Shown here: positions 5,298 to 58,900 of the stretch, piece after piece
Layout: every line of letters begins with the position of its first letter
How positions within the stretch are numbered: position 1 is the first letter of the stretch
NCBI GenBank assembly: GCA_015146655.1
Contig: VKHL01000007.1
Coordinates: forward strand, 62,001 to 126,000
Length of the DNA stretch: 64,000 nt
Origin: Ochromonas danica
Lineage: Eukaryota > Sar > Chrysophyceae > Chromulinales > Chromulinaceae
Direction of reading: 5' to 3'
Program-made: the position numbers and the translations under genes
The notes under the pieces: model-generated
What the model saw: the letters and a program-made list of their open reading frames with translations, nothing else
What the model was told of the DNA's origin: nothing
Database searches by the model: none

Positions 5298-5906
5298 GAA
5301 AGTCTATTTTCCATTTTTTTCGTATTCTCTTTCGCTATCTATCTGTAATTGCAATCGAAGCAGCTACAGTGTATCCCTGATAGGGAATGAATCTCCTTGA
5401 TGTATTGCTAAGATTATAAGATATCTGCTAGTGTGACATTTGTTTTGCTCTCTTTTTATATCTGATTTAAAGGACTTTTGGTGGAGTGTATATTCCTCAC
5501 CAACATCGTCAGAATCATTTTCATGTTGAAGTCAAGAATTGAGAGTTGTAGTTATTTACTGCGCGAAATCTCTGAGAAAGTGGAACTAACGGTGGTAATA
5601 GCAAAAGAGTTGTGTCATAGTTTTCTATATAGGGTCGTGTCCACGATAGAAGCTTTCAGAAAACAAGAAAGTTCAAAATGCTAACCCTTACCGTACATGT
5701 TCACATCCAAGATTGTACACATTCTAGTTCATCCAAGCTTCCAGCGCAAACAAAAACCGCGAAACTCATATTAGCCGGATTATAACTGCAATTACTCACT
5801 CACAGTACTCGCTTCAACAGACCAAGATTCTGGTGAGAGAGAGCAGCAAATCCAAGCCAGAGTGGAGATCATAGTTAAAAATCATTACCATTCCTCAACA
5901 TCCAAG
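5298..5906. other. Intergenic; 3' flank of SDR and promoter of BTB copy 1
   Basis: The first 400 bases are AT-rich without a supported gene. The last 160 bases (from about 5745) resemble the region upstream of the second BTB gene (about 8447-8606), including the shared stretch CTCGCTTCAACAGACCAAG, so the duplication included the promoter. Confidence 0.5.
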
Positions 5907-7953
5907 ATGATCGAAGAAATTGAAGAACAGATCATGAACGAAGATAAAGCATTATCCGGGGGAGCTATTGTTATTCTGGACAAGCTTCACGCAGCTTTGA
6001 TAGACGTAAATTCTCAACTTCAAGAGCTGACTTCCCTCCTCAACGAATTTGAAGACGAAGCAGAGAAATTTAGTGTTATGAAGCATTGCCTACCCGCTGA
6101 TAATAGTAATGGAGCAGAGGAATCCAAGGCTGGCAAAGAAGAAGAGAAGCTGTTGAATCTGAATGTTGGTGGAAACAAGATCTCCATTTCATACGATGCA
6201 ATCCTCGGCGCAGGACGGCAATGCGGGTTATTGGGAGTTTTATTGCACCCACGCTGGCGGAGCTTCATGCTTCGCGATAGAGATGGAAATATCTTTCTAG
6301 ACTTGGATGCAGAATGTCTGCAACCTATTCTGGACAGCTTACAGATTAACCAGCTGGACCCAAAACCTTCTTTCTTGGATCACCTCGTTCTACCTTCTCT
6401 TCCAGCTGCACAAGAGGGATTTTGGGTGTTAAGAGATTTCTTCCGTCTCGGCGTATCGCCTTGCTGCAAGGTTTTCTCAGCGTTCACTGCAGGAAACATC
6501 ATGACCATGTCGCAGGCTTCGGAGTTGTGTCATCACATCGAAAAGAAGTATCCAAACACCACGATTAAATTATTGAGTGAAGTTGATTCTATTGGAAAGA
6601 TTTCATCTGTTACTTCTAAGGGAAACACAAAGCATCTCTTTGTGTGTGGAGGATCAACTGCTTGGGTTGGATTTGTCGCTTTTAATGCCTGGAATGGGCC
6701 AGGATCAGGCTATTCTGTTCAAGCCAATTGGGTCTTATGGGATGGCAGCGACTCTTCTTTCAAGTCTTTTGATGGCGCTGTGGTGATGGCTTCCTATTTC
6801 GACTGTTTCTCATATAATAGCAATAATTTCTCCTTGGGCATAGGCTATAATTCCTCTAATGGTGGCTATAATTCCTCTACATACCCTATTGCAAAATGGG
6901 CTATCTATGAAATTTGCCCAAACAATCAAACGGCTGCACAAGATGAGAGAAGTTTGAATCATAACGAGTATTCTACGAATGACTATTTTGAATTTGATCC
7001 CGTGCTAAAAATGTTCCAGTCAGTTGACTTGAACATCAGTGACTCGCCCGTAAGCGCTTCTTGCGATAGTAATGGTGACTTGAAGTCCGCTGAATCGCTG
7101 CCTAAGATTGATATCCGTGAAGATATCCTTCACTGTGTATCTGGGTTGAATGGGCTTAGTTCTTTAGCGAAGGTCATTGACCAGATGCAAGAAGCTATGG
7201 CGATCAATCGAGCCAAAGTACTCGACGAGGTTCAGTTTATGGAGAACTATGTGCGGACTGTGTATGGCTTCCCAGCAGTTCCAAAACCCATTGATGATGA
7301 GATGCCTCTAGAAGAACCTTCTCCTTCTGCAGGTGTTGATATTAGTCAGATAGCTGATGTGTTGAAGCGCCTGGAAAAGTTGTTGCCAGCGATTTATTCA
7401 CAAAATCGAGCCAACCTCTCTCCAACAACTGTAGCGAAGGTCCAGCCGAGAGCTGATATCTCATCAATCCATGGAGATACTGAGAGCTTGGTGGCATACT
7501 TCAATGTTGCTGGAAGCCAGATTTGTGCAAACAAAATGGCTCTACTGCTCGCCTTCCCGTACAGTCAGTTGGCGACGAGGATGTGGAGCCGGTGGGATGA
7601 GCAGGCTGATACCTTGGATCAAGAAGGCAACAGGATCTATGTAAGTGTCTAGTTATCAGACTTGCTTCATCTTTCACCTGCTGGTAACACTGCTTTGTCT
7701 TGTTCATAATAGAATCTTCCCTATGGAGTGTTTAAGACGATTATTAATGCGGCTCGCACATCAACCCTAAACCATTCCCCACCAAAGGTATTTCTCTTAT
7801 GGTTCTCGTTTTCATCTTAGTATCTTAGCTTAGCAAATGACTTCATACCTCGTGTCGTGTTAGGTGAGAGTGAATCCTACTCAAGTGCAGCAAGTCAACG
7901 CGGTGATCAAATACTTGATGATTTCGGACCTGCCCATCGAGACTATCAACTAA
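5907..7953 (+). CDS. BTB/T1-domain protein, tandem copy 1
   Basis: Three exons: 5907-7640, 7713-7787 and 7864-7953, with 72- and 76-base GT-AG introns, both phase 0; 632 residues. The ATG at 5907 is chosen because it aligns with the start of copy 2. Residues 25-60 form a coiled coil (HAALIDVNSQLQELTSLLNE). Residues 81-180 match a BTB/POZ domain of the T1 (KCTD) type: LLNLNVGGNKISIS, then FMLRDRDGNIFLDLDAECLQPILD. KCTD-type proteins assemble into oligomers and often serve as Cullin-3 adaptors or tether signalling partners. Residues 200-350, rich in Trp, Gly, Asn and Ser, form a compact domain I cannot name. The C-terminal 200 residues are helical. The second and third exons encode the tail, conserved in copy 2, which supports the splice model. 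Confidence 0.8.
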
Positions 7954-8606
7954 ACTGTACAATGGAAGTTCTTGCATGTAATGAGTGAAATGATTCAGCA
8001 GGGGTGCTTTTCATTGCATGCTAATGTCCTTAAGTAGGCTTGTTGTTATTGGGAAAAGATAGGTTTTGTATTTTCTCTCAATTCCATAGTCCAATAGTTA
8101 ATCCCCAGAAGAGTCCAATATTTATATATAGAAGTCCTTGCGCTGGTCACTTCCATTTCCTGCAGATACCACCAGAAGAAAATAATGAATATGGGGCTTC
8201 CTTTCGCGTTGCCGATTAAAGAGATGGAGCGAGATAATGAACTCCTTGAAAACAGGTTAGACTCTCACCAGGAGTCTTCGTTATGACGTGGAGGCCCCAT
8301 CCCTTCCAATCGAAAGTAAACTCCATCCACATTCTCCTCTCCATAAAATATCTTCGCTTGTCACATGGTACATGGCTTTAATTGTCACACATTCGAAATG
8401 GCTTTGGCTCAAAATTGGCTCGAAACAGAAACCACCACACCTTCCACCGCAAACAAAACCACGTGCTTACGAAACTCACTTTTACAAGCTTATAAATGAA
8501 ACTAATCACTCACAATACTCGCTTCAACAGACCAAGATTCTGGTGAGAGAGAAAGCAAATCCAAAGCATCGAAGGAAAAGGCATTTATTATTCCTCGGTA
8601 TCCAAG
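7954..8606. other. Spacer between BTB copies
   Basis: Contains the 3' flank of copy 1 and, from about 8447, the duplicated promoter of copy 2. The middle (8160-8290) is not shared with the copy-1 flank. Only short open frames occur and no gene is supported. Confidence 0.5.
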
Positions 8607-10662
8607 ATGATCCAAGAAATTGAAGAGCTAATAGAAGAAAAGAGAAGAGAGCTTTTAGAAAACTCCACCAAAAACATTTTAAAAAAGCTTCACGCAGCTT
8701 TGATTGACGTAAATTCTCAACTTCAAGAGCTGACTTCCCTCCTCAACGAACTTGAAGACAAAGCAGAGAAATTTAGTGTTATGAAGCGTTGCCTACCCGC
8801 TGATAAAAGTAATGGTGTTTCAACAGAGGAATCCAAGGCTGGCAAAGAAGAAGAGAAGCTGTTGAATCTGAATGTTGGTGGAAACAAGATCTCCATTTCA
8901 TACGATGCAATCCTCGGCGCAGGACGGCAATGCGGGTTATTGGGAGTTTTATTGCACCCACGCTGGCGGAGCTTCATGCTTCGCGATAGAGATGGAAATA
9001 TCTTTCTAGACTTGGATGCAGAATGTCTGCAACCTATTCTGGACAGCTTACAGATTAACCAGCTGGACCCAAAACCTTCTTTCTTGGATCACCTCGTTCT
9101 ACCTTCTCTTCCAGCTGCACAAGAGGGATTTTGGGTGTTAAGAGATTTCTTCCGTCTCGGCGTATCGCCTTGCTGCAAGGTTTTCTCAGCGTTCACTGCA
9201 GGAAACATCATGACCATGTCGCAGGCTTCGGAGTTGTGTCATCACATCGAAAAGAAGTATCCAAACACCACGATTAAATTATTGAGTGAAGTTGATTCTA
9301 TTGGAAAGATTTCATCTGTTACTTCTAAGGGAAACACAAAGCATCTCTTTGTGTGTGGAGGATCAACTGCTTGGGTTGGATTTGTCGCTTTTAATGCCTG
9401 GAATGGGCCAGGATCAGGCTATTCTGTTCAAGCCAATTGGGTCTTATGGGATGGCAGCGACTCTTCTTTCAAGTCTTTTGATGGCGCTGTGGTGATGGCT
9501 TCCTATTTCGACTGTTTCTCATATAATAGCAATAATTTCTCCTTGGGCATAGGCTATAATTCCTCTAGTGGTGGCTATAATTCCTCTACATACCCTATTG
9601 CAAAATGGGCTATCTATGAAATTTGCCCAAACAATCAAACAGCTCCACCAGATGAGAGAAGTTTGAATGGCAACGAGTATTCTACGAATCACTATTTTGA
9701 ATTTGATCCCGTGCTTGACTTGTCAATTGACTTGAACATCAGTGACTCGCCCGTAAGCGCTTCTTGCGATAGTAATGGTGACTTGAAGTCCACTGAATCG
9801 CTGCCTAAGATTGATATCCGTGAAGATATCCTTCACTGTGTATCTGGGTTGAATGGACTTAGTTCTTTAGCGAAGGTCATTGACCAGATGCAAGAAGCTA
9901 TGGCGATCAATCGAGCCAAAGTACTCGACGAGGTTCAGTTTATGGAGAACTATGTGCGGACTGTGTATGGCTTCCCAGCAGTTCCAAAACCCATTGATGA
10001 TGAGATGCCTCTAGAAGAACCTTCTCCTTCTGCAGGTGTTGATATTAGTCAGATAGCTGATGTGTTGAAGCGCCTGGAAAAGTTGTTGCCAGCGATTTAT
10101 TCACAAAATCGAGCCAACCTCTCTCCAACAACTGTAGCGAAGGTCCAGCCGAGAGCTGATATCTCATCAATCCATGGAGATACTGAGAGCTTGGTGGCAT
10201 ACTTCAATGTTGCTGGAAGCCAGATTTGTGCAAACAAAATGGCTCTACTGCTCGCCTTCCCGTACAGTCAGTTGGCGACGAGGATGTGGAGCCGGTGGGA
10301 TGAGCAGGCTGATACCTTGGATCAAGAAGGCAACAGGATCTATGTAAGTGTCTAGTTATCAGACTTGCTTCATCTTTCACCTGCTGGTAACACTGCTTTG
10401 TCTTGTTCATAATAGAATCTTCCCTATGGAGTGTTTAAGACGATTATTAATGCGGCTCGCACATCAACCCTAAACCATTCCCCACCAAAGGTATTTCTCT
10501 TATGGTTCTCGTTTTCATCTTAGTATCTTAGCTTAGCAAATGACTTCATACCTCGTGTCGTGTTAGGTGAGAGTGAATCCTACTCAAGTGCAGCAAGTCA
10601 ACGCGGTGATCAAATACTTGATGATTTCGCACCTGCCCATCGAAGCTGACAACTATCTATAG
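8607..10662 (+). CDS. BTB/T1-domain protein, tandem copy 2
   Basis: Three exons at 8607-10343, 10416-10490 and 10567-10662, exactly parallel to copy 1; 635 residues. The body from the coiled coil onwards is almost identical to copy 1 at the nucleotide level, introns included. Differences cluster in three places: the first 25 codons (here rich in Lys, Glu and Arg), a short acidic linker around residue 370, and the last few codons (IEADNYL instead of IETIN). The T1 motif LNVGG and the DRDGNIFLDLD strand are intact. The clustering of differences suggests either a recent duplication followed by local change or ongoing gene conversion. Its role is as uncertain as that of copy 1; both look functional. 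Confidence 0.8.
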
Positions 10663-11584
10663 TATTCCTTGCATGTGATGAGTCAAGTGTGGCTTTCATT
10701 GTAAGCAAATGACTTTCCACACTGCTTGCTCGGTCGTGGAGACCCTAGCATTCCTTGTGTAAGAGAATCTTGAGAATGATTTCAGGCATCTCTCCCATTC
10801 CATTTCATCTATTTTATCTCTGAAAGTCTTACGGTCTGTTAGCTCATTGGATACGTCGACCAATCATGAGATCGTCGCTTGTCATATCACCCACCGAATT
10901 GGTATTCGCCACTGGCAATAAAGACCATTCATGGACGCACGGTATCCAGAAATTCCCTCGTTTTCCCCACGAGGTCATCAATAGGGTCGAGATTCAACAT
11001 AACTTTTCTCCGTCGAGGGTTGAAGGAGAAATTGTAGAGGTGCATGTGGTAGTGGTTGAGCGCACTTTACAGCTTACACCTCACGATTGTGTGCTTTACA
11101 CCACTTGGCGGCGTTCTTGTTGATTCACATCTTCGAGGATCCAAGGCCGAGGACTGCACTACAAGGAGTTGCGTACGGCGTAAATGAGCTGCGATCGGCA
11201 ACTGGTACACTTAGCAGATCACCTTCTAACCTGTTCCATAGTAAGTAACTGTTCACGTTCACTCCGAATATTGGACTTACCAGAATTACCCTTCATAAAC
11301 ATAGTCTAACAAGAAAGATGTAGCAGTAGTTGACTAGTGTAAACCTACTGTAAGATCTAAAATTAATCTTCTCTCCCATCTTCACCATCTTGTCTGCACT
11401 TGCCACTTCCACTTCTTCTGTGTGTTGTGGTGCTGCTCGGTGCTGTATGATGATGTCATTCACATGACAGAACAACACCCAAAACAACAGCAACAACAAC
11501 AACAGCAACACCGAAGTTGACCTTGCAGCAATAGATCCTGAGCTGTCTACTGTCCTACTATCACACTTCTTCATTATCAATATC
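10663..11584. other. Intergenic, no supported gene
   Basis: A plus-strand frame of 85 codons at 10866-11123 opens with an ATG and contains LVFATGNKD, reminiscent of the ITPase/Ham1 signature. The rest of the frame does not follow that family and no further exon was found, so it is not called a gene. The remainder is AT-rich. Positions 11480-11515 hold a CAA/CAG-type microsatellite just upstream of the CDGSH gene. Confidence 0.4.
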
Positions 11585-16193: not shown

Positions 16194-17207
16194 ATGGTCA
16201 AGCCCCTTATAGCTCAAGTGGCTCACGAGGATAAACCTCTCCACACCAAGCGAAATGCGACTTTGCGAGCTGTCTACGCAGAGTTTGTGGGGACCATCTT
16301 CATGCTACTTCCAATAGTGGCGATAATCCTCCACAATAAGAACCAACGTACTTCAGATGGTGACGCGCGCCTAATTATCGGCCTAGCTGCTGGATTGAAC
16401 TGTATTTGCCTAATCATGTGTTTCTCCGGTCTCTCTGGGGCCATCTTCAATCCTGCCATCACTTTCTCTCTGTGGATTGCAGGAAAGATTAGTAACCGCA
16501 AGTGCTTCTTCTTCATCTTGGTGCAGATGCTTGGTTCGATCGCCTGCATGCTGCTTATCTATGCTTCGTTTCCTCATGTAGATCGTGGCATGTGGGAAGC
16601 TTGTGTCATTCGGCCAGCGGACGGAGCGAGCAGTTGGCATGTGTTTTTCACGGAGTTCTTGACGACCTTCATCTTGACGTACTGTGCCTTTGCGATGGCA
16701 TTTGAGGAAGCAGAGTCGTTGAAGTCTAAGACGATGTCTTTCGAAGCAGTGGACGAATCGGATGGGTTGGTGGTCTTCGGATCCACTCCTCAGTCGAAGG
16801 TGGGTTTTGCACCTTTCGCGATTGGTTTTGTGGTGTTTGTGTTGAGTCAGTATGGTGGAGGAAGCGGAGCATCGATGAATCCTGCTCGCATGTTTGGTCC
16901 AGCGATAATGACGAACATTTGGGATAGTTGGGGTTATTATGTGTTGGGAGAGTTTTTGGGAGCCTCTGCGGCGGGGTTGTTAGTATCACATGGTCCTCAA
17001 AGTGGTGACAGACTGGACAACAGTGTTTCTGGTACTTCTTTTTCGTTTGGTCATAATCCTGTTTTATCACATTTTCGCGAATCAGATTTATCGTTAGCTG
17101 TGGTAGTGGTTGATTTATCGCACCAGTCTAGTTTTGCTCTGGCAAGTTCCCTTCCTCATTCCCTAGTAAATGCTTGTATTGCGTCTGAAGGGACGGATAT
17201 AGTGTGA
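16194..17207 (+). CDS. Aquaporin (MIP family), copy A
   Basis: Intronless, 337 residues, six membrane spans and two half-helices with canonical NPA boxes: FNPAITF near residue 85 and MNPARMF near 228. Members conduct water or small neutral solutes such as glycerol; selectivity is not readable with confidence. The first two spans (LRAVYAEFVGTIFMLLPIVA and the next) and the C-terminal 70 residues differ strongly from the inverted paralogue at 20-21 kb, while the 580 bases between are nearly identical. The C-terminal tail after the last span is long and rich in Ser. The start ATG is followed by a short charged cytosolic segment, as usual for the family. Confidence 0.92.
   Translation: MVKPLIAQVAHEDKPLHTKRNATLRAVYAEFVGTIFMLLPIVAIILHNKNQRTSDGDARLIIGLAAGLNCICLIMCFSGLSGAIFNPAITFSLWIAGKISNRKCFFFILVQMLGSIACMLLIYASFPHVDRGMWEACVIRPADGASSWHVFFTEFLTTFILTYCAFAMAFEEAESLKSKTMSFEAVDESDGLVVFGSTPQSKVGFAPFAIGFVVFVLSQYGGGSGASMNPARMFGPAIMTNIWDSWGYYVLGEFLGASAAGLLVSHGPQSGDRLDNSVSGTSFSFGHNPVLSHFRESDLSLAVVVVDLSHQSSFALASSLPHSLVNACIASEGTDIV
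16414..16993 (+). repeat. Inverted-repeat arm 1 (aquaporin core)
   Basis: These 580 bases match the reverse complement of 20307-20886 without indels; by eye I found a single mismatch (GGG versus GGT in a glycine codon). Both ends stop abruptly inside coding sequence, beyond which the paralogues diverge even at the protein level. Confidence 0.9.
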
Positions 17208-19239: not shown

Positions 19240-19800
19240 TCAACATCAACATCAATTTATGGCACGTGTGGCTATGCTCTCTCTTTGTTGATCATTTATC
19301 AACTAAAATCAGGGGGAAATCAGGGATTATGCCACTCGGAATATGCCCACTTCCGTGGCTGAATTCTTTGAAGCATGTAATCGAAGGTCAATTGCAGATT
19401 GGCATGCAACCACTTCTTCATGATCGGTTTTGGTGACACACAGGATGTCATAGCGGATGTGCTCCTACACAGGAAGATGCAGGTGGTGAACGGCAAGCAC
19501 AAGTTCGGCGAGAAGCCGCACGTGTGATCCTATGCATCCCCTAATCCGCACTCCGAAGTCTCGTGAAGAACATACTGAGATCTGGAAGTCGTGCAGGCAG
19601 AGAAGTTCGAACTCGTTGTCATCTTCGCAGCCGCGGAAGGTGCCAGCATTATTCTTATTCTACACCTCGGTCACGAGTCTTCGGCAAAGTGTTCAGAGAA
19701 CACGGAAAAAGAGAACTTGTTGGGCGTTCTGTGGACTCCGTGGAGTAGATCCCATACCAACTCAACATCACATCTCGAGGCAGCAACTGGAACCACCGAA
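19240..19800 (+). pseudogene. Relic of a Crinkler/RHS-like NTPase gene (broken)
   Basis: Translated pieces resemble the central and C-terminal parts of the NTPase-nuclease genes at 30.3-34.8 kb: MPTSVAEFFEACN corresponds to the MPTW...ADFFNSK region, and VIADVLLHRKMQVVNGKHKFG to the AVADVLVHR...NGKNKFG region. The P-loop part was not found. It is clearly broken, with several interruptions, and diverged well beyond the two identical intact copies, so it is an older member of the family. It lies between the EF-hand gene and aquaporin B, on the side away from both coding regions. Confidence 0.65.
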
Positions 19801-20127: not shown

Positions 20128-21216
20128 CTAAACCTTCCCGGTGTTGGGCATCTGCACAGAAGATGGCTCGGATTGCAGAGGAGCAGGTGGTCGACCATTA
20201 ACCAAAGATGCCCTAGACAACCCACCTGCAGAAAATGATAACGAACCATTTGGCATTGAGCTTGGCCGAGGAGAGTTCTCCTTAGGCCTTTCACCACTAT
20301 GAGGTCCATGTGATACTAACAACCCCGCCGCAGAGGCTCCCAAAAACTCTCCCAACACATAATAACCCCAACTATCCCAAATGTTCGTCATTATCGCTGG
20401 ACCAAACATGCGAGCAGGATTCATCGATGCTCCGCTTCCTCCACCATACTGACTCAACACAAACACCACAAAACCAATCGCGAAAGGTGCAAAACCCACC
20501 TTCGACTGAGGAGTGGATCCGAAGACCACCAACCCATCCGATTCGTCCACTGCTTCGAAAGACATCGTCTTAGACTTCAACGACTCTGCTTCCTCAAATG
20601 CCATCGCAAAGGCACAGTACGTCAAGATGAAGGTCGTCAAGAACTCCGTGAAAAACACATGCCAACTGCTCGCTCCGTCCGCTGGCCGAATGACACAAGC
20701 TTCCCACATGCCACGATCTACATGAGGAAACGAAGCATAGATAAGCAGCATGCAGGCGATCGAACCAAGCATCTGCACCAAGATGAAGAAGAAGCACTTG
20801 CGGTTACTAATCTTTCCTGCAATCCACAGAGAGAAAGTGATGGCAGGATTGAAGATGGCACCAGAGAGACCGGAGAAACACATGATCATGGCTATCACAT
20901 TTATTGCTGCCGCTAGCCCAGTAGTGAGGCGAGTGAATGTTCCTGACGCACCTTCTGCATAGTTGTTGGCAAGAATGCCAAATATAGGCATGAAGAAGCA
21001 GATAGTTCCCAAAAATTCTGCATAGACAGCACGAAGCATTGCCTTTCTTCTTCCAGCTCTGGCTTCTTCTTTGGTGGTGGGGTCATCCAGGACTGTGTGG
21101 ATCAACTTCTCTCGAATACCAGATTCTGATCGATTTGACTGAGAATTGTCCTGCTGATTCTGGTTTTGACCATCCTCCAACAGAGAGTTTCGTTTATTGA
21201 ATTTCAGCCCAAACAT
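20128..21216 (-). CDS. Aquaporin (MIP family), copy B
   Basis: Intronless, 362 residues from the ATG at 21216. The upstream open frame to 21261 starts with a non-ATG codon and is ignored. The topology is as in copy A, with NPA boxes FNPAITF and MNPARMF. It has an 80-residue polar N terminus rich in Gln and Asn before the first span (LRAVYAEFLGTICFFMPIFG). The C-terminal tail is rich in Pro and Ser and differs completely from copy A. The inverted 580-base core (20307-20886) gives an identical protein sequence from just after the second span to the sixth span. Copies A and B face each other tail to tail with about 2.9 kb between them. Substrate unknown; water or glycerol is likely. Confidence 0.92.
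   Translation of the reverse strand: MFGLKFNKRNSLLEDGQNQNQQDNSQSNRSESGIREKLIHTVLDDPTTKEEARAGRRKAMLRAVYAEFLGTICFFMPIFGILANNYAEGASGTFTRLTTGLAAAINVIAMIMCFSGLSGAIFNPAITFSLWIAGKISNRKCFFFILVQMLGSIACMLLIYASFPHVDRGMWEACVIRPADGASSWHVFFTEFLTTFILTYCAFAMAFEEAESLKSKTMSFEAVDESDGLVVFGSTPQSKVGFAPFAIGFVVFVLSQYGGGSGASMNPARMFGPAIMTNIWDSWGYYVLGEFLGASAAGLLVSHGPHSGERPKENSPRPSSMPNGSLSFSAGGLSRASLVNGRPPAPLQSEPSSVQMPNTGKV
20307..20886 (-). repeat. Inverted-repeat arm 2 (aquaporin core)
   Basis: Reverse-complement partner of 16414-16993, equal in length and nearly identical. See arm 1. Confidence 0.9.
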
Positions 21217-30303: not shown

Positions 30304-31990
30304 ATGCTCACTTTCGCCCTTTGTTGTCTTTTTTCCCTTTGGTTAAGCATCTTGTTGGATCTCATATTGTCAGTTGATCTTGTCTCGTGCATCGTTGAGC
30401 GGAAGCGTATTTTATCTATGTACACGAGAAGCCACCAGAAAGGTATTAAAATAAATGCTGTTTACTGTTTCCATTAGACTGACAGTACTTTTACTCTTTT
30501 GTTTAGTGGAAATTGTTTTCAAGGAGGATGGTAACAAGTTCTTAGATCTCTCTGGTGTGCCTGATTTGTTGAAGCAGCGGTCAGGCCTCACAACATACCT
30601 CTACCTCCGCGACTGCTACGACGACTTATTCGAGGACATCTCCTCATGCGTGAGTCAAGACATACCTGGTATGAGCAAGACGATCGCCATTCTGGGGACT
30701 GAAGGCATCGGGAAGAGCGCTCTGTTCCTCGTCATCCTGAAGAAGCTGTTAGAGGACCCCAGCACACTGGGCCTAACGACACGGTCATTCTACTACCAGA
30801 CTAGATGCAGTAGTAGAGATCAGATCTGGCTATATCGTCATGTTCGTGCGAACGAATTCAGCCTAACAAGAGCTATTCAAGACCTGCCGCTTGATGAAGA
30901 CATTCCGCTGTTCGTGGATATGGAGACTATGGACGGGTCTCCAAATGGGCACCTCGGTGTGTCTCTTATCTTTACGGCGTTTCGACTATCTCATTTCAAA
31001 CAGCTGACCAAGAACGGCTGGCGCAAGGTGATGCCCACGTGGTCAGCTGAGGAGCAGGCGGACTTCTTCAACTCCAAGCAGTTCGAGAGGGAGTATGGGA
31101 AGGAGGCGGCCCTGCGCGCCTACGACAACATGCATTTCTTCGGTGGGACCATTCGGGACAATATCCAATTCGCGATCACCAGGAGCAGCCCAATAGAAGA
31201 ACTTGAACCTGCCATACAGGACAAGGGAGAACTGGTATGTGACCGCTTCTTCAAGTTCGGTTCTGGTAACCCAGCAGTGGCGGATGTGCTCGTGCACAGA
31301 AACCCGCATGTGGTGAATGGCAAGAACAAGTTCGGCAAGATGCCTTACGTCTATTCCTTCGCCTCCCCGTTCGTACTGCGAAGCTTCCTCCAGCTAAAGA
31401 ACAACATGCTCGTGACCCAGGCGCGCAACAAGTACAATACTGACACCTACCGTGGCCATGACAAAGATGGAGGCGAGTTTGAGCTTCTCTGCATCCATGG
31501 TTTCAAGATCTCAGGTGTGGAGTTTGAAGCACAGCCGCTCACTGACGGTACACAAGCTACCAGAGTGACCTTCCCGCCAAAGGAAGTGTTGGCGCTCAAC
31601 TGGCGAGAGCAGGAGAATTACCTGCAGCCGAACTTGTTGTACATCCCTCCCTACGGTAATCTGGAGTCCGGTGACGCTTTCTGCTTGATGAAGATCGACG
31701 AGAGGTGGACGCTGGTCATATTGCAGTGCACAATCAGTGAGACGCATCCAGTGAAGCAGAACGGGGTGAAGATCATCCACGATTGCTATAGCATGAACTC
31801 ACAGCTCGCGGTGGACGAGACGGTGATCATGTTCATGACCCCGCTCAATGGCAAGCTGACAACCAAGCAGTCACTGGTGACACAGAAGAAGGGAGAAGGG
31901 TTGGAAGAAGCTCAGCAAGTTACAGTCATAGTCAGTGCGCAGTACAAGATCGAGAACGAGCTGGTCTCTGATGATGACATTGCAGCATGA
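30304..31990 (+). CDS. Crinkler/RHS-like P-loop NTPase-nuclease, copy 1
   Basis: Two exons, 30304-30442 and 30507-31990, joined by a 64-base phase-1 intron; 540 residues. Exon 1 begins like the clpP presequence (MLTFAL) and stays hydrophobic, then leaves clpP sequence. The main exon has a Walker A motif (GTEGIGKSALF), an RHS/Crinkler-type block (FTAFRLSHFKQLTKNGWRK, then VMPTWSAEEQADFF), the following AYDNMHFFGGTIRDNI, and a C-terminal restriction-nuclease-like core: GDAFCLMKID and VILQCTISETHPVKQNG, with Gln-x-Thr in place of the usual catalytic Glu-x-Lys, as in many RHS/Crinkler nucleases. Family members in other protists act as NTPase-nuclease effectors or are tied to retroelement hot spots. 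The family call rests on motif memory. The body is identical to copy 2. Confidence 0.7.
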
Positions 31991-32170
31991 TGGAGGTATC
32001 CTGCTTATTGTATTGCTGCAGTGAAAACCTTGCATGTGTAAGGATATAATAGTAGACAGCACTCCCTGCATGCAGCTTGAGATGGAAGCTCCGCCGTTTC
32101 CACGTGTTGCAGCTTCTCCAGTTTGAACATACTCACAGCTGTGCGTTTTACAGCAAAGGTTAATGGTCAG
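30438..32170 (+). repeat. Direct repeat unit A containing NTPase copy 1
   Basis: Identical by eye to 33279-35011 (offset 2841 bases), covering the 64-base intron, the whole main exon and about 180 bases of 3' flank. It ends at GGTTAATGGTCAG, where the two downstream sequences diverge. Confidence 0.85.
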
Positions 32171-32257
32171 NNNNNNNNNNCCGTTTCCACGTGTTGCAGC
32201 TTCTCCAGTTTGAACATACTCACAGCTGTGCGTTTTACAGCAAAGGTTAATGGTCAG
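32094..32257. other. Ten-N gap flanked by the same 77 bases
   Basis: Positions 32171-32180 are N. The 77 bases before (32094-32170) and after (32181-32257) are identical, each abutting the gap. This looks like two contig ends sharing an unmerged overlap, so the gap may contain no missing sequence and one 77-base copy may be artificial. Confidence 0.8.
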
Positions 32258-32334
32258 GCCTTGATAGTAATATATTTTCCCTTTGAAGCACTAATGCCTG
32301 GCTTGTTCCATACCAAACAGACAGATCATTTGAA

Positions 32335-32724
32335 ATCACCTGAGCTTGCTCAGACTTCAACAATAGTTCATCCATATAATGCTTTGTCCATTCGCCCGTT
32401 AATGATGAGGAAGAAGGAACACTTGTTAACCGCTAGACACCCAACACCAAAAACATTGAGCCCGTTGTATACAAAGAGAAAATATCAATAGATCGATAGA
32501 CACCTACCTGATCAATAGCACCATAATCTAACTTTCGCTAGTCGTCTCCTGAGGAGCTACCTTTTCAAATGGAGGGAAGACACCAGCAGAAGTGAGAGAA
32601 TGGGCAGGCTGGACAGCAGATGATGCTCTGTCCTCAAAAGCATCCCATTCCACATCTTCTTGAGACGATACGAAAAGCATCCCAAGCAAAAGGATCGCAC
32701 AGCAAAGGTGAATTCTTCGAAGGT
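32335..32724. repeat. Mosaic of fragments from two distant genes (first copy)
   Basis: 32335-32672 matches the 3' part of the Gln-rich gene (donor 56344-56596 joined to 56769-56869, with an internal deletion), including that gene's 75-base intron. 32687-32724 is a 38-base exact match to the coding region of the EF-hand gene (18420-18457). The fragments show no coding capacity here. Confidence 0.8.
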
Positions 32725-32817
32725 CACGCCATCTTACGGTGGATTCCATGGATTCCATGGAATCCATTAACAACAATGCTGCGTGGGGTGCGTGGAGAGG
32801 GACTGCAGACAGTCGCT

Positions 32818-34831
32818 ATGCTCACTTTCGCCCTTTTCTTGCAGCTGGCTTGCCTATTACTGCCTTCTATGGCTTATCAGCCCAAGGCCTTTGCCTCCAT
32901 GCCAAGAGCCTTGCAGACCAGCAAAAGCGAATTGTCTTCTCGCTTGCAGCTCACCAATGCCAACAGCCTGGCTCATCCCACCTCTTCTTTAATTCTACCT
33001 TCCTACCTGCAAAGGTTGCAGTCTTTACGAATGGCTGATCCTGATGCTCCTCCTGAAGTGGACCCCACTCGCAAGGATCCAGACGAACCCTCGCAGCCTT
33101 CACTGAAGAAGAAGAAGGGTATTTAAATAGACGTTCTTCGCCTTATTTTGTCGTCTTTCCTGTCTATGGTTTAACCTCTAGTTCGATCTCTTGTTGTCAC
33201 TTGATATCTTCTATTATTTTCTTCAGCTGCATCAACTGGTGGAGGACGTGGCAAAACATCTTCACCAAAGAAGAAGGAGAAAGGTATTAAAATAAATGCT
33301 GTTTACTGTTTCCATTAGACTGACAGTACTTTTACTCTTTTGTTTAGTGGAAATTGTTTTCAAGGAGGATGGTAACAAGTTCTTAGATCTCTCTGGTGTG
33401 CCTGATTTGTTGAAGCAGCGGTCAGGCCTCACAACATACCTCTACCTCCGCGACTGCTACGACGACTTATTCGAGGACATCTCCTCATGCGTGAGTCAAG
33501 ACATACCTGGTATGAGCAAGACGATCGCCATTCTGGGGACTGAAGGCATCGGGAAGAGCGCTCTGTTCCTCGTCATCCTGAAGAAGCTGTTAGAGGACCC
33601 CAGCACACTGGGCCTAACGACACGGTCATTCTACTACCAGACTAGATGCAGTAGTAGAGATCAGATCTGGCTATATCGTCATGTTCGTGCGAACGAATTC
33701 AGCCTAACAAGAGCTATTCAAGACCTGCCGCTTGATGAAGACATTCCGCTGTTCGTGGATATGGAGACTATGGACGGGTCTCCAAATGGGCACCTCGGTG
33801 TGTCTCTTATCTTTACGGCGTTTCGACTATCTCATTTCAAACAGCTGACCAAGAACGGCTGGCGCAAGGTGATGCCCACGTGGTCAGCTGAGGAGCAGGC
33901 GGACTTCTTCAACTCCAAGCAGTTCGAGAGGGAGTATGGGAAGGAGGCGGCCCTGCGCGCCTACGACAACATGCATTTCTTCGGTGGGACCATTCGGGAC
34001 AATATCCAATTCGCGATCACCAGGAGCAGCCCAATAGAAGAACTTGAACCTGCCATACAGGACAAGGGAGAACTGGTATGTGACCGCTTCTTCAAGTTCG
34101 GTTCTGGTAACCCAGCAGTGGCGGATGTGCTCGTGCACAGAAACCCGCATGTGGTGAATGGCAAGAACAAGTTCGGCAAGATGCCTTACGTCTATTCCTT
34201 CGCCTCCCCGTTCGTACTGCGAAGCTTCCTCCAGCTAAAGAACAACATGCTCGTGACCCAGGCGCGCAACAAGTACAATACTGACACCTACCGTGGCCAT
34301 GACAAAGATGGAGGCGAGTTTGAGCTTCTCTGCATCCATGGTTTCAAGATCTCAGGTGTGGAGTTTGAAGCACAGCCGCTCACTGACGGTACACAAGCTA
34401 CCAGAGTGACCTTCCCGCCAAAGGAAGTGTTGGCGCTCAACTGGCGAGAGCAGGAGAATTACCTGCAGCCGAACTTGTTGTACATCCCTCCCTACGGTAA
34501 TCTGGAGTCCGGTGACGCTTTCTGCTTGATGAAGATCGACGAGAGGTGGACGCTGGTCATATTGCAGTGCACAATCAGTGAGACGCATCCAGTGAAGCAG
34601 AACGGGGTGAAGATCATCCACGATTGCTATAGCATGAACTCACAGCTCGCGGTGGACGAGACGGTGATCATGTTCATGACCCCGCTCAATGGCAAGCTGA
34701 CAACCAAGCAGTCACTGGTGACACAGAAGAAGGGAGAAGGGTTGGAAGAAGCTCAGCAAGTTACAGTCATAGTCAGTGCGCAGTACAAGATCGAGAACGA
34801 GCTGGTCTCTGATGATGACATTGCAGCATGA
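32818..34831 (+). CDS. Chimera: clpP signal/transit peptide fused to Crinkler/RHS-like NTPase, copy 2
   Basis: Three exons: 32818-33118, 33227-33283 and 33348-34831, with 108- and 64-base introns, both phase 1; 613 residues. Exon 1 is nearly identical to the clpP presequence (one codon shorter) up to EPSQP, with Tyr at +1 after the SMA cleavage site. It then switches to LKKKK. The small second exon encodes a Gly/Lys linker (ASTGGGRGKTSSPKKKEKV). The third exon is the same NTPase-nuclease body as copy 1 (Walker A GTEGIGKS, MPTWSAEEQ, VILQCTISETHP). The frame is open across both junctions. If expressed, the product would carry a bipartite plastid address, unusual for this family. The ATG inside the second intron at 33296 (MLFTVS) is rejected as a start. 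Gene prediction or assembly error cannot be excluded. Confidence 0.65.
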
Positions 34832-35011
34832 TGGAGGTATCCTGCTTATTGTATTGCTGCAGTGAAAACCTTGCATGTGTAAGGATATAATAGTAGACAG
34901 CACTCCCTGCATGCAGCTTGAGATGGAAGCTCCGCCGTTTCCACGTGTTGCAGCTTCTCCAGTTTGAACATACTCACAGCTGTGCGTTTTACAGCAAAGG
35001 TTAATGGTCAG
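33279..35011 (+). repeat. Direct repeat unit B containing NTPase copy 2
   Basis: Partner of 30438-32170. The absence of visible differences over about 1.7 kb, including intron and 3' flank, implies very recent duplication, gene conversion or an assembly duplication. Confidence 0.85.
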
Positions 35012-35030
35012 ACGTTGATAGTAAGCCGTT

Positions 35031-35305
35031 GCGTGATGAGGAAGAAAGAACACTTGTTAACCACTAGACACCCAACACCAAAAACATTGAGCCCGTTGTA
35101 TACAAAGAGAAAATATCAATAGATCGATAGACACCTACCTGATCGATAGCACCATAATCTACTTCGCTAGTCGTCTCCTGAGGAGCTACCTTTTCAAATG
35201 GAGGGAAGACACCAGCAGGAGTGAGAGAATGGGCAGGCTGGACAGCAGATGATGCTCTGTCCTCAAAAGCATCCCAAACAAAAGGATCGCACAGCAAAGG
35301 TGAAT
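35031..35305. repeat. Mosaic of fragments from two distant genes (second copy)
   Basis: 35031-35276 repeats a shorter version of the Gln-rich-gene fragment with the same internal deletion as the first copy. 35277-35305 is a 29-base match to the EF-hand gene. The shared deletion shows both mosaics descend from one event. Confidence 0.8.
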
Positions 35306-35428
35306 AGGTTAGACTACTCATTAAGTTAAAGCTCAGCTTCATCTTACAGTGGATTCCATGGAATCCATTAGCAACAAAGCTGCGTGGAGGGCGGCTGTGA
35401 TTAAAAGAAGAACGAGAAGACAGTCACG

Positions 35429-36412
35429 ATGCTCACTTTCGCCCTTTTCTTGCAGCTGGCTTGCCTATTACTGCCTTCTATGGCTTATCAGCCCAACAAG
35501 GCCTTTGCCTCCATGCCAAGAGCCTTGCAGACCAGCAAAAGCGAATTGTCTTCTCGCTTGCAGCTCACCAATGCCAACAGCCTGGCTCATCCCACCTCTT
35601 CTTTAATTCTACCTTCCTACCTGCAAAGGTTGCAGTCTTTACGAATGGCTGATCCTGATGCTCCTCCTGAAGTGGACCCCACTCGCAAGGATCCTGACGA
35701 ACCCTCGCAGCCTGCCGTCCCTGTCCGCCTGCCTGTGGTAAGTACACTCACCCCCCACCCCTTCACACCTTCACACCGCCTCTCTTCCTAAGACACCATG
35801 GGCATGACTTTACTTCCTCAGGTGGACTTTGGCGGCACGAAGATGGACGTGAACTCTCGCTTGTTGAAGGACCGCATCATTATGATTGGCAAGCAAGTGG
35901 ACGATGCCATGGCCAACGTCGTCGTGGCACAGTTACTCTACCTTGCCAATGAAGATCCTGAGAAGGATATCACCATTTATATCAACTCACCTGGTGGATC
36001 CATCTCATCGGGTATGGCCATCTTCGATACGATGCAGTTCATCCCTTGTGATGTCAGCACCGTCTGCTTCGGCATGGCCGCCTCGATGGGTGCTTTCCTT
36101 CTCGCAGCTGGCACCAAGGGAAAGCGTAAGTCTTTACCTAATGCTCGTATTATGATCCATCAGCCTTTAGGAGGTGCAAGAGGTCAGGCTGCGGATATTG
36201 AGATCCAAGCTAAGGAGATTTTGTTCGTGCGCGCTCAAATCAATTCCTACTTGGCGGCCTTCACTGACCAGCCTGTGGATAAGATTGAAGAAGATTGTGA
36301 TCGTGACTTCTTCTTAACTGCTGAACAAGCTGTGGACTATGGATTGATAGACGAGGTGGTGAAGACCAAGGTGTCTCACATCAAGATGCCTTCCATGAAC
36401 CTTTCCATATAA
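35429..36412 (+). CDS. CLPP: ATP-dependent Clp protease proteolytic subunit, plastid-targeted
   Basis: Two exons, 35429-35737 and 35822-36412, with an 84-base phase-0 intron; 299 residues, of which about the first 100 are presequence. A signal peptide ([19 protein letters not shown]) is followed by Tyr at +1 and a Ser/Leu/Arg-rich transit stretch, a bipartite address for a red-lineage complex plastid. The mature enzyme has the catalytic serine in [15 protein letters not shown], the histidine in [13 protein letters not shown] and the aspartate in [20 protein letters not shown], plus the [11 protein letters not shown] loop. ClpP forms the barrel of the stromal Clp protease working with ClpC/ClpX unfoldases. 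Its promoter and presequence exist in three tandem versions (30.2, 32.7 and 35.3 kb); only this one leads into the protease. Confidence 0.95.
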
Positions 36413-55970: not shown

Positions 55971-58900
55971 CTATTGAGGAGGAGATTCAAGAATGTAGCA
56001 CAAATTGGGTAGACTTTTGAGGAAGGCTCGCGCTGCTGGCGATAATGCTCCTTCCACCCGCGACACACTGTCAGATATTAAGATACTGTCAACACCACAC
56101 GGAACACGAGCACATTGTCACATGAACGGCGCACGACACTTACCTGTCAAAACTTGGGTCGATATTACTAACAACAGTAGCTTCTCCCGCAGTAGAGACG
56201 CCACTTTCATGTTGTGACGAGGGATGCTGAGATAAAGCTCCGCCTGCATCGTGGACCTCTTTGATGGAGACCGCCTTCTTGGGGAACGGCTTGGTTAAGA
56301 TGCGAGCAGGGAGTCCGAAACGCTGTCGATTCACGAGATCTGACATCACCTGAGTTTGCTCAGACTTCAACAATACTTCATCCATGCAATGCTTTGACCA
56401 TTCGTCCACTAAACCGTCGCGTGATGAGGAAGAAGGAACACTTGTTAACCACTAGACAGCCAACACCAAAGCCACTCAGCCCGTTGTACACAAAGAGAAA
56501 ACATCAAAAGATCGATAGACACCTACCTGATCGATAGCACCATAATCTACTTCGCTAGTCGTCTCCTGAGGAGCTACCTTTTCAAACGGAGGGAAGAATT
56601 GGCTCGCGAACTCCAAAGTTCTGGAGAGAAACTCTTGCTGAACTTGCAGCTGGGAAAGCTCCACTTCATGATGCTCAACAGCGGATGCTGTAGAAGCTTC
56701 AAAAGCATCCCATTCCACATTGTCCGAAGGGGGCTCGACCTGCTTCTTGAGAGGTGTCCGTACCTCAACACCAGCAGGATTGAGAGAATGGGCAGGTTGG
56801 ACAGCAGATGAAGCGCTGTCCTCAAAAGCATCCCATTCCACATCTTCTTGAGACGATACGAGCTGTTCACTCTCTTTAGATGTAATGATGGTTTCAGAAT
56901 CCACAGCCACAGCAGGCGCTTCAGCAAATGCAGCCCAATCGTCATCATCTTCATCTTCCGCGGCAACTATCTGAGCGTTTTCTTCTTCTTTATGTCCATC
57001 GTCGACCAGCAACTCTTGCTGTTGCGTCACCACCTGCTGTGGTTGCTGGTAGTCAGCAAAGGATTCCCATTCTGCTTCAGCTTCAACAGAAGGCTGCTGC
57101 TCTTGCAATTGAGTCTTGCTTACTTCATCTACCACTACCTCATGTTGATCTTCCTCTACCTCGTGCTGTGTCACTAACACTGGTTGTTGTTGCTCTTCTT
57201 CTTTCGTCACGGGCGGCTGTGGCTGTGGCTGTGGTTGTGGCTGTTGGTAGTCAGCAAAGGATTCCCATTCATCTTCAGCCTCCACAATAACAGACTGCTG
57301 TTCTTGTAACTCTGTCGGCTGTTCCTTTTCTTCTGGTTGCTGCTGTTGGTCTTCCTCTTTCATCACGGGAGGCTGTACCACTTGCTGTGGTTGTTGGTAG
57401 TCAGCAAAAGATTCCCATATATCTTCAACTTCCTCAGCAGACTTCAACCCTTGCTGCTGTGTCTGTGCTTGTTCCTCCTCATCTAGTTTCTGTTGCTCTT
57501 CACCATGTGCCACCAACACTGGCACTTCCTGCTGTTGCTGTTGTGGTTGTTGCTGCTGATGGTCAACAAAGGATTCCCATGGATCTTCAGCTTCCGCAGC
57601 AGGCAGTTGCTCTTTGGACTGATTTTGCTCCTTTTCTTCCAATTTCTGTTGTTCTTCTTCATTTTTACTCATGGTTACGGCTTGCTGTTCTGGCTCGCGA
57701 GCATCCGCTTCTACTACAGATTGTTGTTCTTGCTGTTCTTCTTCCTTGTGCATCTCAGGCTCGTCTAACTCATATGCCACTAAACGCTCCTCGTGCTGTG
57801 CCACCAACACTGGTTGTTGAAGTTGTGCCTGCAGTTGCTGATGGTCAACAAAGGATTCCCATGGGTCTTCAGCTTCCACCATAGAAGCCTTCTCCTGCAA
57901 CTCTGGTTGTTGTTTCTCATCTGGCTGCTGTTGTTGCTGATGGTCAACGAAGGATTCCAATAGATCAGACTGCTGCTCTTGCAATTGAGGCTTATTCACA
58001 TCATCTGTCACTACCTCACGTTGGTTTACCTTTTCTTCGTGCTGTGTCACTAACACTGGCTGATGTTGATGTTGCAGCTGTTGCTCTTCCTCTTTCATCA
58101 CCGAATGATGTACCACCTGCTGTGGTTGTTGGTGGTCAGCAAAAGATTCCCATATATCTTCAACTTCCTCAGCAGACTTCAACCCTTGCTGCTGTGTCTG
58201 TGCTTGTTCCTCCTCATCTAGTTTCTGTTGCTCTTCACCATGTGCCACCAACACTGGCACTTCCTGCTGTTGCTGTTGTGGTTGTTGCTGCTGATGGTCA
58301 ACAAAGGATTCCCATGGATCTTCAGCTTCCGCAGCAGGCAGTTGCTCTTTGGACTGATTTTGCTCCTTTTCTTCCAATTTCTGTTGTTCTTCTTCATTTT
58401 TACTCATGGTTACGGCTTGCTGTTCTGGCTCGCGAGCATCCGCTTCTACTACAGATTGTTGTTCTTGCTGTTCTTCTTCCTTGTGCATCTCAGGCTCGTC
58501 TAACTCATATGCCACTAAACGCTCCTCGTGCTGTGCCACCAACACTGGTTGTTGAAGTTGTGCCTGCAGTTGCTGATGGTCAACAAAGGATTCCCATGGG
58601 TCTTCAGCTTCCACCATAGAAGCCTTCTCCTGCAACTCTGGTTGTTGTTTCTCATCTGGCTGCTGTTGTTGCTGATGGTCAACGAAGGATTCCAATAGAT
58701 CAGACTGCTGCTCTTGCAATTGAGGCTTATTCACATCATCTGTCACTACCTCACGTTGGTTTACCTTTTCTTCGTGCTGTGTCACTAACACTGGCTGATG
58801 TTGATGTTGCAGCTGTTGCTCTTCCTCTTTCATCACCGAATGATGTACCACCTGCTGTGGTTGTTGGTGGTCAGCAAAAGATTCCCATATATCTTCAACT

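What the first reader, a model, noticed from the sequence alone, without database searches (positions are those of the whole stretch)
32818..34831. Plastid presequence of clpP spliced to a Crinkler/RHS-like NTPase-nuclease
Seen: a near-copy of the clpP signal and transit peptide continues, through two phase-1 introns and a Gly/Lys linker exon, into a P-loop NTPase with a nuclease-like C terminus, with the frame open throughout. Known: this family is not usually sent to plastids, and Crinkler/RHS proteins are modular with swapped N-terminal domains. Inference: duplication next to clpP created a gene whose product would carry a plastid address, possibly aimed at plastid DNA or at invaders there.
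Basis: partly seen in the sequence, partly recalled or inferred. Interest (0 to 1): 0.75.

Follow-up and report, generated by a model that had tools for sequence, protein, structure and literature searches.

The report
Nuclease gene wearing borrowed host leaders
In an alga-like genome, a family of NTPase-nuclease-like genes has repeatedly taken the front ends of ordinary cell genes, here the plastid address of the protease clpP, which would send near-identical proteins to different parts of the cell.

Summary
At 32818-34831 the clpP signal/transit peptide runs in frame, through two phase-1 GT-AG introns, into a P-loop NTPase body: 613 aa, open. The join lies near an assembly gap and the body is a perfect 1,734-bp repeat, so this copy alone would be suspect. 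The same fusion recurs on two other contigs with bodies only 75-78% identical; one is fully open (594 aa), one has a broken body.

Of 11 body loci found (a lower bound), 8 carry a 5' end traceable to a resident gene, from five donors: clpP, a nucleolin-like gene, a cytochrome b561, a P450-like gene and an acidic Ser-rich protein. Near-identical bodies carry different leaders. One leader insert is flanked by a 39-bp duplication. Bodies evolve under constraint (dN/dS 0.5-0.8); leaders show none.

Best reading: a Crinkler/RHS-like family that renews its 5' exon, and so its promoter or address, by capturing host gene starts. Plastid delivery and nuclease activity are inferred. CR membership is motif-level only. 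Transcription was not testable.

The parts
32818..33118 (+). Exon 1 of the fusion gene (copy C7b): clpP-like signal and transit peptide, ending PSQP-SLKKKK, phase 1
   Evidence: clpP copy at 35429
33119..33226 (+). Intron 1 (GTATTT...CTTCAG)
   Evidence: homologous intron in C24, C183, C56a and partly C56b
33227..33283 (+). Exon 2: Gly/Lys linker AASTGGGRGKTSSPKKKEK, NLS-like by eye
   Evidence: absent from C223
33284..33347 (+). Intron 2 (GTATTA...GTTTAG)
   Evidence: present in all 7 close copies aligned
33348..34831 (+). Exon 3: NTPase-nuclease-like body, Walker A GTEGIGKS, NLESGDAF...LQCTISETHPVK
30304..31990 (+). Copy C7a: truncated clpP-like start run into intron-1-like sequence (exon 30304-30442), intron 30443-30506, body 30507-31990; frame open, 540 aa
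32171..32180 (.). Assembly gap (10 N); flanks 32094-32170 and 32181-32257 identical over 77 bp
32403..33099 (+). Duplicated clpP 5' block, leader included; 86% identical to 35034-35713
35429..36412 (+). clpP, the donor: exon 1 35429-35737, exon 2 35822-36412, 299 aa, Clp protease domain
19396..19683 (.). Degraded fragments of the same body family, one on each strand, each with a stop

Best explanation
The gene belongs to a small family (at least 11 body loci) of Crinkler/RHS-like P-loop NTPase-nucleases whose members mostly keep an intact C-terminal body but replace their first exon with the 5' ends of resident genes: N-terminal coding sequence, with the donor's start codon inside the copied piece for four of five donors and 138 bp or more of upstream sequence for three (clpP at C7b, b561, C13). 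SHOWN in sequence: five donors, DNA-level copies (introns retained in the LisH-type leader), in-frame joins, leaders younger than bodies (or homogenised since). INFERRED: copies arise by (a) tandem duplication whose junction joins a neighbour's first exon to the body (C7) and (b) insertion of a short copied fragment during break repair (C175b, C175c), and selection keeps those in frame. INFERRED: the C7b product is expressed from clpP-like upstream sequence, enters the complex plastid by its ER signal and F+1 transit peptide, and there acts as an ATP-dependent nuclease-like protein; sister copies would be sent to the nucleolus/nucleus or membranes.
For: 11 body loci. Leaders: clpP in C7b, C223, C24; nucleolin-like C222 in C183 and C56a; P450-like anchor in C56b; b561 of C60 in C175b, 490 bp at 99.4%; C13 gene in C175c, 398 bp at 99.5% with 39-bp flanking duplication. 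Each of the 5 donors has at least one copy joined in frame. C7b, C223 and C56b run open from leader ATG to the terminal stop; C175b and C175c show no stop through the leader and 1,479 nt of body. LisH-led C56a retains CCCTCGCAGCCT, the end of the clpP leader, before the body: a scar of an earlier leader. Synonymous divergence C7b-C223 is 0.06 in the leader against 0.25 in the body (Fisher p = 0.002). Body dN/dS 0.49-0.79 between diverged pairs. Hydrophobic start and AFAS motif kept in C7b, C223 and C24; the 45 residues from that F carry net charge +3 to +4.
Against: No transcript or localisation data. Leader dN/dS is near or above 1 after fusion. C183 loses frame at the leader join and the C24 body is broken in two places (by eye). 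The C56a leader runs off the contig end, so its start is not seen; the C56b start codon lies 22 bp before its donor match begins. The window is rich in duplications, so fragment copying may be general; I ran no genome-wide control. C175a and C268 leaders were not traced to a resident donor, and C7a is only a remnant. Nuclease fold not confirmed: the single-sequence model failed (mean pLDDT 31.8), and family matches are weak.
Confidence: 0.6

Rival explanations
1. Duplication debris: the chimeras are recent, unexpressed by-products of a duplication-prone genome, open only because they are young.
For: C183 and C24 are broken, leader dN/dS about 1, donor identities of 99.4-99.5% at C175b and C175c show youth, other large duplications lie in the window.
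Against: Body dN/dS 0.49-0.79 at dS 0.21-0.26 shows lasting constraint; each of 5 donors has a copy joined in frame (chance about (1/3)^5 if independent; my arithmetic); splice sites survive in diverged copies; all five donors gave an N-terminal region in sense orientation.
Confidence: 0.25
2. The leader supplies only a promoter, start codon and 5' exon; the working protein acts in the nucleus, guided by the Lys-rich linker (NLS-like by eye), for instance after internal initiation.
For: Linker PKKKEK; a nucleolin-like leader on sister copies; T. cruzi RHS proteins lie in the nuclear region (PMC7563717, passages); leader sequence is not conserved after fusion. C223 lost the linker exon but keeps a run of five Lys at the join.
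Against: Leaders of C56b and C175b bring hydrophobic anchor-like segments, which fits nuclear action poorly.
Confidence: 0.2
3. Assembly artefact: the clpP leader was joined to the wrong copy of a collapsed repeat.
For: 10-N gap, exact 77-bp overlap, 1,734-bp perfect repeat.
Against: Same join on C223 and C24 with bodies only 75-78% identical; no N in the eight family stretches and one donor stretch checked.
Confidence: 0.05
4. Reverse direction: clpP took its presequence from this family.
For: For clpP alone the sequence cannot give direction; the leader is found on three family copies and one clpP.
Against: For b561 (Pfam domain begins at residue 65, captured through about residue 75) and the nucleolin-like gene the leader is plainly part of the donor protein; direction for clpP follows by analogy.
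Confidence: 0.08

Closest known systems
CR (Crinkler-RHS-type) proteins, as reviewed in PMC5289972 (abstract and sections 4 and 11 read)
   Same: Modular: an N-terminal header joined to a P-loop NTPase plus REase-type nuclease; several unrelated headers known; occur in free-living eukaryotes too; bodies proposed to come from prokaryotic, transposon-linked proteins.
   Different: Here most N-termini are copies of resident housekeeping genes, not header domains. A header-like N-terminus is seen in C268, shared with proteins on C99 and C56 that have other C-termini.
N/C-terminal recombination among Phytophthora sojae CRN genes (PMC3726527, passages read)
   Same: 35% of CRN genes have different N-terminal regions with nearly identical C-termini; shared fragments of 40-303 bp.
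   Different: There the exchanged parts come from other CRN genes; here from unrelated resident genes.
Trypanosome RHS family (TIGR01631)
   Same: Two divergent bodies hit the C-terminal part of the same model at overlapping positions (611-692 and 458-693).
   Different: Scores 11-12 bits against a cut-off of 89.75; the C268 body gave no such match.
Diatom PETF transit-peptide acquisition (PMC3022921, passages read)
   Same: A plastid transit peptide on a separate exon, proposed to come from another plastid gene by duplication and exon shuffling.
   Different: There a plastid protein is sent home; here a nuclease-like body with no known plastid history gains the address.

Membership tests
CR (Crinkler-RHS-type) | P-loop NTPase module | tested here: met
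   Walker A GxxGIGKS and a candidate Walker B Asp invariant in 6 aligned bodies; motif level only
CR (Crinkler-RHS-type) | REase-type nuclease C-terminus | tested here: inconclusive
   Invariant E325, E386/D389, Q406xT, HPVK; weak TIGR01631 match in 2 of 3 bodies; structure model failed
CR (Crinkler-RHS-type) | Dedicated header domain at the N-terminus | tested here: not met
   C7b begins with the clpP presequence; of 11 loci only C268 was seen to have a header-like N-terminus shared with other C-termini
CR (Crinkler-RHS-type) | Score above a curated family cut-off | tested here: not met
   No Pfam or NCBIfam model above cut-off for 3 bodies; PF07999 search of the genome empty, but its controls rang nowhere
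Protein imported into a complex plastid | ER signal followed by transit peptide with F at +1 | tested here: met
   Leader equals clpP's but for one codon; hydrophobic start then KA/FASMP, net +3 over 45 residues; motif recalled, no predictor run
Protein imported into a complex plastid | Observed localisation | not testable with these tools
   Needs a fluorescence or proteomic test
Plastid-type ClpP (donor) | Clp protease domain behind the presequence | tested here: met
   PF00574 E 1.7e-81, 299-aa spliced frame
Transposable element | Defined ends and target-site duplication around the body | tested here: inconclusive
   A 39-bp duplication flanks the leader insert of C175c, not a body; no common body ends seen by eye

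The most novel reading that the evidence does not exclude
A nuclease family that re-addresses itself: its copies sit at or provoke DNA breaks, repair copies in 5' ends of active genes, and in-frame winners deliver the same NTPase-nuclease to plastid, nucleus and membranes, giving the cell a portfolio of compartment-specific DNA defences or a selfish element a series of expression niches.
Probability: 0.15. Interest if true: 0.85.

Novelty: new variant of a known kind. Interest (0 to 1): 0.62.

Why it matters
Swapping of N-terminal parts is known inside Crinkler families, and transit peptides are known to be borrowed. Here unrelated resident genes donate their starts again and again to one effector-like nuclease family, and at C175 the cuts are so fresh (99.4-99.5% identity, a 39-bp duplication, an 18-bp repeated donor edge) that the steps can be read. 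It makes testable how such proteins gain new headers and whether a nuclease can be re-aimed at organelles by one duplication.

Tried and rejected
Relatives outside the genome: none confirmed by tblastn in viral contigs (31 stretches matched a pattern) or genome contigs (19 stretches). Solved structures: 7 chance-level hits, best E 0.32. PADLOC: 0 families for 3 bodies. AlphaFold2 on the single body: mean pLDDT 31.8, discarded, so no fold search was run; the second job was not used because paralogs fetched from the whole genome are not on that tool's list of accepted sources. Retroposition of leaders rejected: the LisH-type leader matches its donor through the introns. Capture of the LisH-type leader before the clpP leader rejected as less simple: the 12-nt clpP remnant would then be coincidence. 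One search was aimed at the wrong flank (3' side of C175a) and is not used. Literature: 10 searches answered. None listed a paper whose title or abstract start describes host-gene 5' capture by a CR family, but four listings were capped (20 of 62, 12 of 255, 15 of 374, 8 of 63 papers). The library lacks most subscription journals, and the primary CR paper (Zhang et al. 2016) was seen only through the review. The organism was not identified; that it is a photosynthetic alga is inferred from the clpP presequence.

Full report
WHAT IS THERE. The window is contig C7:62001-126000 of a 31.2-Mb eukaryote assembly in 337 contigs. Between a gene with a weak, below-cut-off beta-propeller match and clpP lie two copies of one long exon, 30455-31990 and 33296-34831 as stop-to-stop frames, identical over 1,734 bp (30437-32170 = 33278-35011). 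The second copy, C7b, is preceded by a leader that repeats the clpP presequence. Joining 32818-33118, 33227-33283 and 33348-34831 gives a 613-aa open frame with GT-AG introns, both phase 1.

HOW FAR TO TRUST THE LOCAL ASSEMBLY. A 10-N gap lies at 32171-32180. The 77 bases on either side are identical, which I read as an unresolved k-mer overlap. The perfect repeat begins six bases before intron 2, and in the left copy it ends at the gap, so the path from the C7b leader into the body depends on repeat resolution. Independent copies answer this: C223 and C24 carry the same leader (88% identical in protein) next to bodies 78% and 75% identical to C7b. The junction reads CCCTCGCAGCCT/TCACTGAAG in C7b, CCCTCACAGCCT/TCACCGAAG in C223, and CCCTCGCAGCCT followed by a 3-nt insertion and TCACCGAAG in C24. 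Near-identical copies also occur elsewhere with a few differences (C56a/b 99.86% over 2,151 bp; C175b/c 99.95% over 1,843 bp), so young duplicates are a property of this family.

THE FAMILY. Two searches with two different bodies agree on 11 body loci: C7 x2, C223, C183, C24, C56 x2, C268, C175 x3. The tool calls such counts lower bounds. One search listed 14 rows: two belong to C24 and two are degraded fragments in this window at 19396-19683. One search listed 13 rows: the 11 plus weak matches on C113 and C30, not counted. Six aligned bodies share an invariant Walker A, a candidate Walker B Asp, FGG..R, and a C-terminal block E325...NLESGDAF...Q.T....HPVK. Between diverged bodies dN/dS is 0.49-0.79 at dS 0.21-0.26, and 0.54 for the close pair C223-C183.

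THE LEADERS. (1) clpP: C7b, C223, C24. C223 has lost intron 1 and exon 2 but remains open (594 aa); the C24 body is broken in two places (by eye). (2) A gene on C222 with a LisH-like N-terminus (LisH recalled, by eye), an acidic Ser-rich stretch, two RRMs and an RGG-rich tail gives the leader of C183 (451 aligned bp, 93.6%, from 2 bp before the start codon, introns included) and C56a (217 bp, 96.3%; the rest is off the contig end). In C56a the join is in frame; in C183 it is not (by eye). (3) The membrane anchor of a P450-like gene (named from recalled motifs, by eye) gives C56b its first exon (142 bp, 94.4%), spliced at GTGAGT in phase 1; 549 aa open; the C56b start codon lies 22 bp before the match begins. 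(4) A cytochrome b561 gene on C60 (PF03188 E 1.5e-26) gives C175b 490 bp at 99.4%, of which 265 bp lie before the start codon. (5) An 838-aa acidic Ser-rich ORF on C13, with no Pfam match at E 0.1, gives C175c 398 bp at 99.5%, 138 bp of it before the start codon. So 8 of 11 loci trace to five donors. C7a shows a remnant of the clpP start run into intron-1-like sequence (540 aa open). The C175a leader matched only C175 itself. C268 has a coiled-coil-like N-terminus (by eye) shared with proteins on C99 (66%) and C56 (45%) that have other C-termini, which looks like a native header.

TRACES OF MECHANISM. C175a and C175c are collinear except that C175c holds the C13 fragment between two copies of a 39-bp stretch (one mismatch by eye) that C175a has once; the left donor edge shares GCATA with the target. 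In C175b an 18-bp piece of the donor edge is repeated before the body resumes. Both look like copying during break repair (inference). At C7 the order body, clpP 5' block, body, clpP 5' block, clpP is what one tandem duplication would give if its junction joined the clpP first exon to the body (inference). The LisH-led C56a keeps CCCTCGCAGCCT of the clpP leader just before the body, while the donor reads TCTGATAGC there: the LisH-type leader most simply replaced an older clpP leader. C183 (LisH-type leader) and C223 (clpP leader) have bodies at dS 0.014, so leaders and bodies reassort. Leader dS between C7b and C223 is 0.06 against 0.25 for the body (4 of 69 against 69 of 322 synonymous sites, rounded; Fisher p = 0.002), so leaders are younger than, or have been homogenised since, the split of the bodies.

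WHAT IT MIGHT DO. The clpP leader keeps a hydrophobic start, KA/FASMP and a 45-residue stretch of net +3 to +4 in C7b, C223 and C24, as expected for a complex-plastid address (motif recalled). Sister leaders bring hydrophobic anchor-like segments (C56b, C175b, C7a) or a LisH-like, acidic N-terminus. I therefore expect C7b protein in the plastid. Against this, leader dN/dS is 0.9-1.8 in comparisons with C223 or C24 (11 non-synonymous against 2-4 synonymous changes, 4 against 1 between C223 and C24), which shows no constraint, and the Lys-rich linker could act in the nucleus if the leader is bypassed. Nuclease action rests on resemblance.

MEMBERSHIP. It works like a CR protein by architecture. 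I do not file it as a proven member: no curated model passes its cut-off for the three bodies scanned, the Trypano_RHS match is weak and missing for C268, P-loop models of other families score about as well, no header is seen in most copies, and no fold was obtained.

AGAINST. The window holds other duplications (5738-7992/8441-10689 at 94%, 16368-17011/20288-20931 inverted at 97%), so fragment copying may be general. The needed genome-wide control was not run (12 of 12 genome searches used).

Noticed in passing
56479-58200 (minus frame; repeats run to 60193), with pieces at 32328-32673 and 35022-35276: A repeat-rich gene (WESFxDHQQ units) whose C-terminal end is copied upstream of both clpP leaders, so another gene's 3' end sits in the duplicated block.
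   Followed up: partly
5738-7992 and 8441-10689: Tandem duplication, 94% identical over about 2.28 kb.
   Followed up: no
16368-17011 and 20288-20931: Inverted repeat of about 645 bp at 97%, enclosing the degraded body fragments at 19.4-19.7 kb.
   Followed up: no
L031:2016-2282 and 6035-6301 (C56): Transposase-like fragment (QQDNDPKHTA...WPAYSPDLNPIENLW, recalled as Tc1/mariner DDE type) inside both duplicated C56 units.
   Followed up: no
L067 (C99:77800) and L068 (C56:160005): Proteins sharing the C268 N-terminus but with other C-termini; the C56 one has ADYGIL...AVVEDK, nuclease-like by eye.
   Followed up: partly
L052 (C60:67001-76500): Two cytochrome b561 genes in inverted order, nearly identical except at the C-terminal end.
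   Followed up: no
C113:37551 and C30:107774: Weak matches to the C175 body (24-25% identity, frames of 563 and 559 aa); leaders not examined.
   Followed up: no
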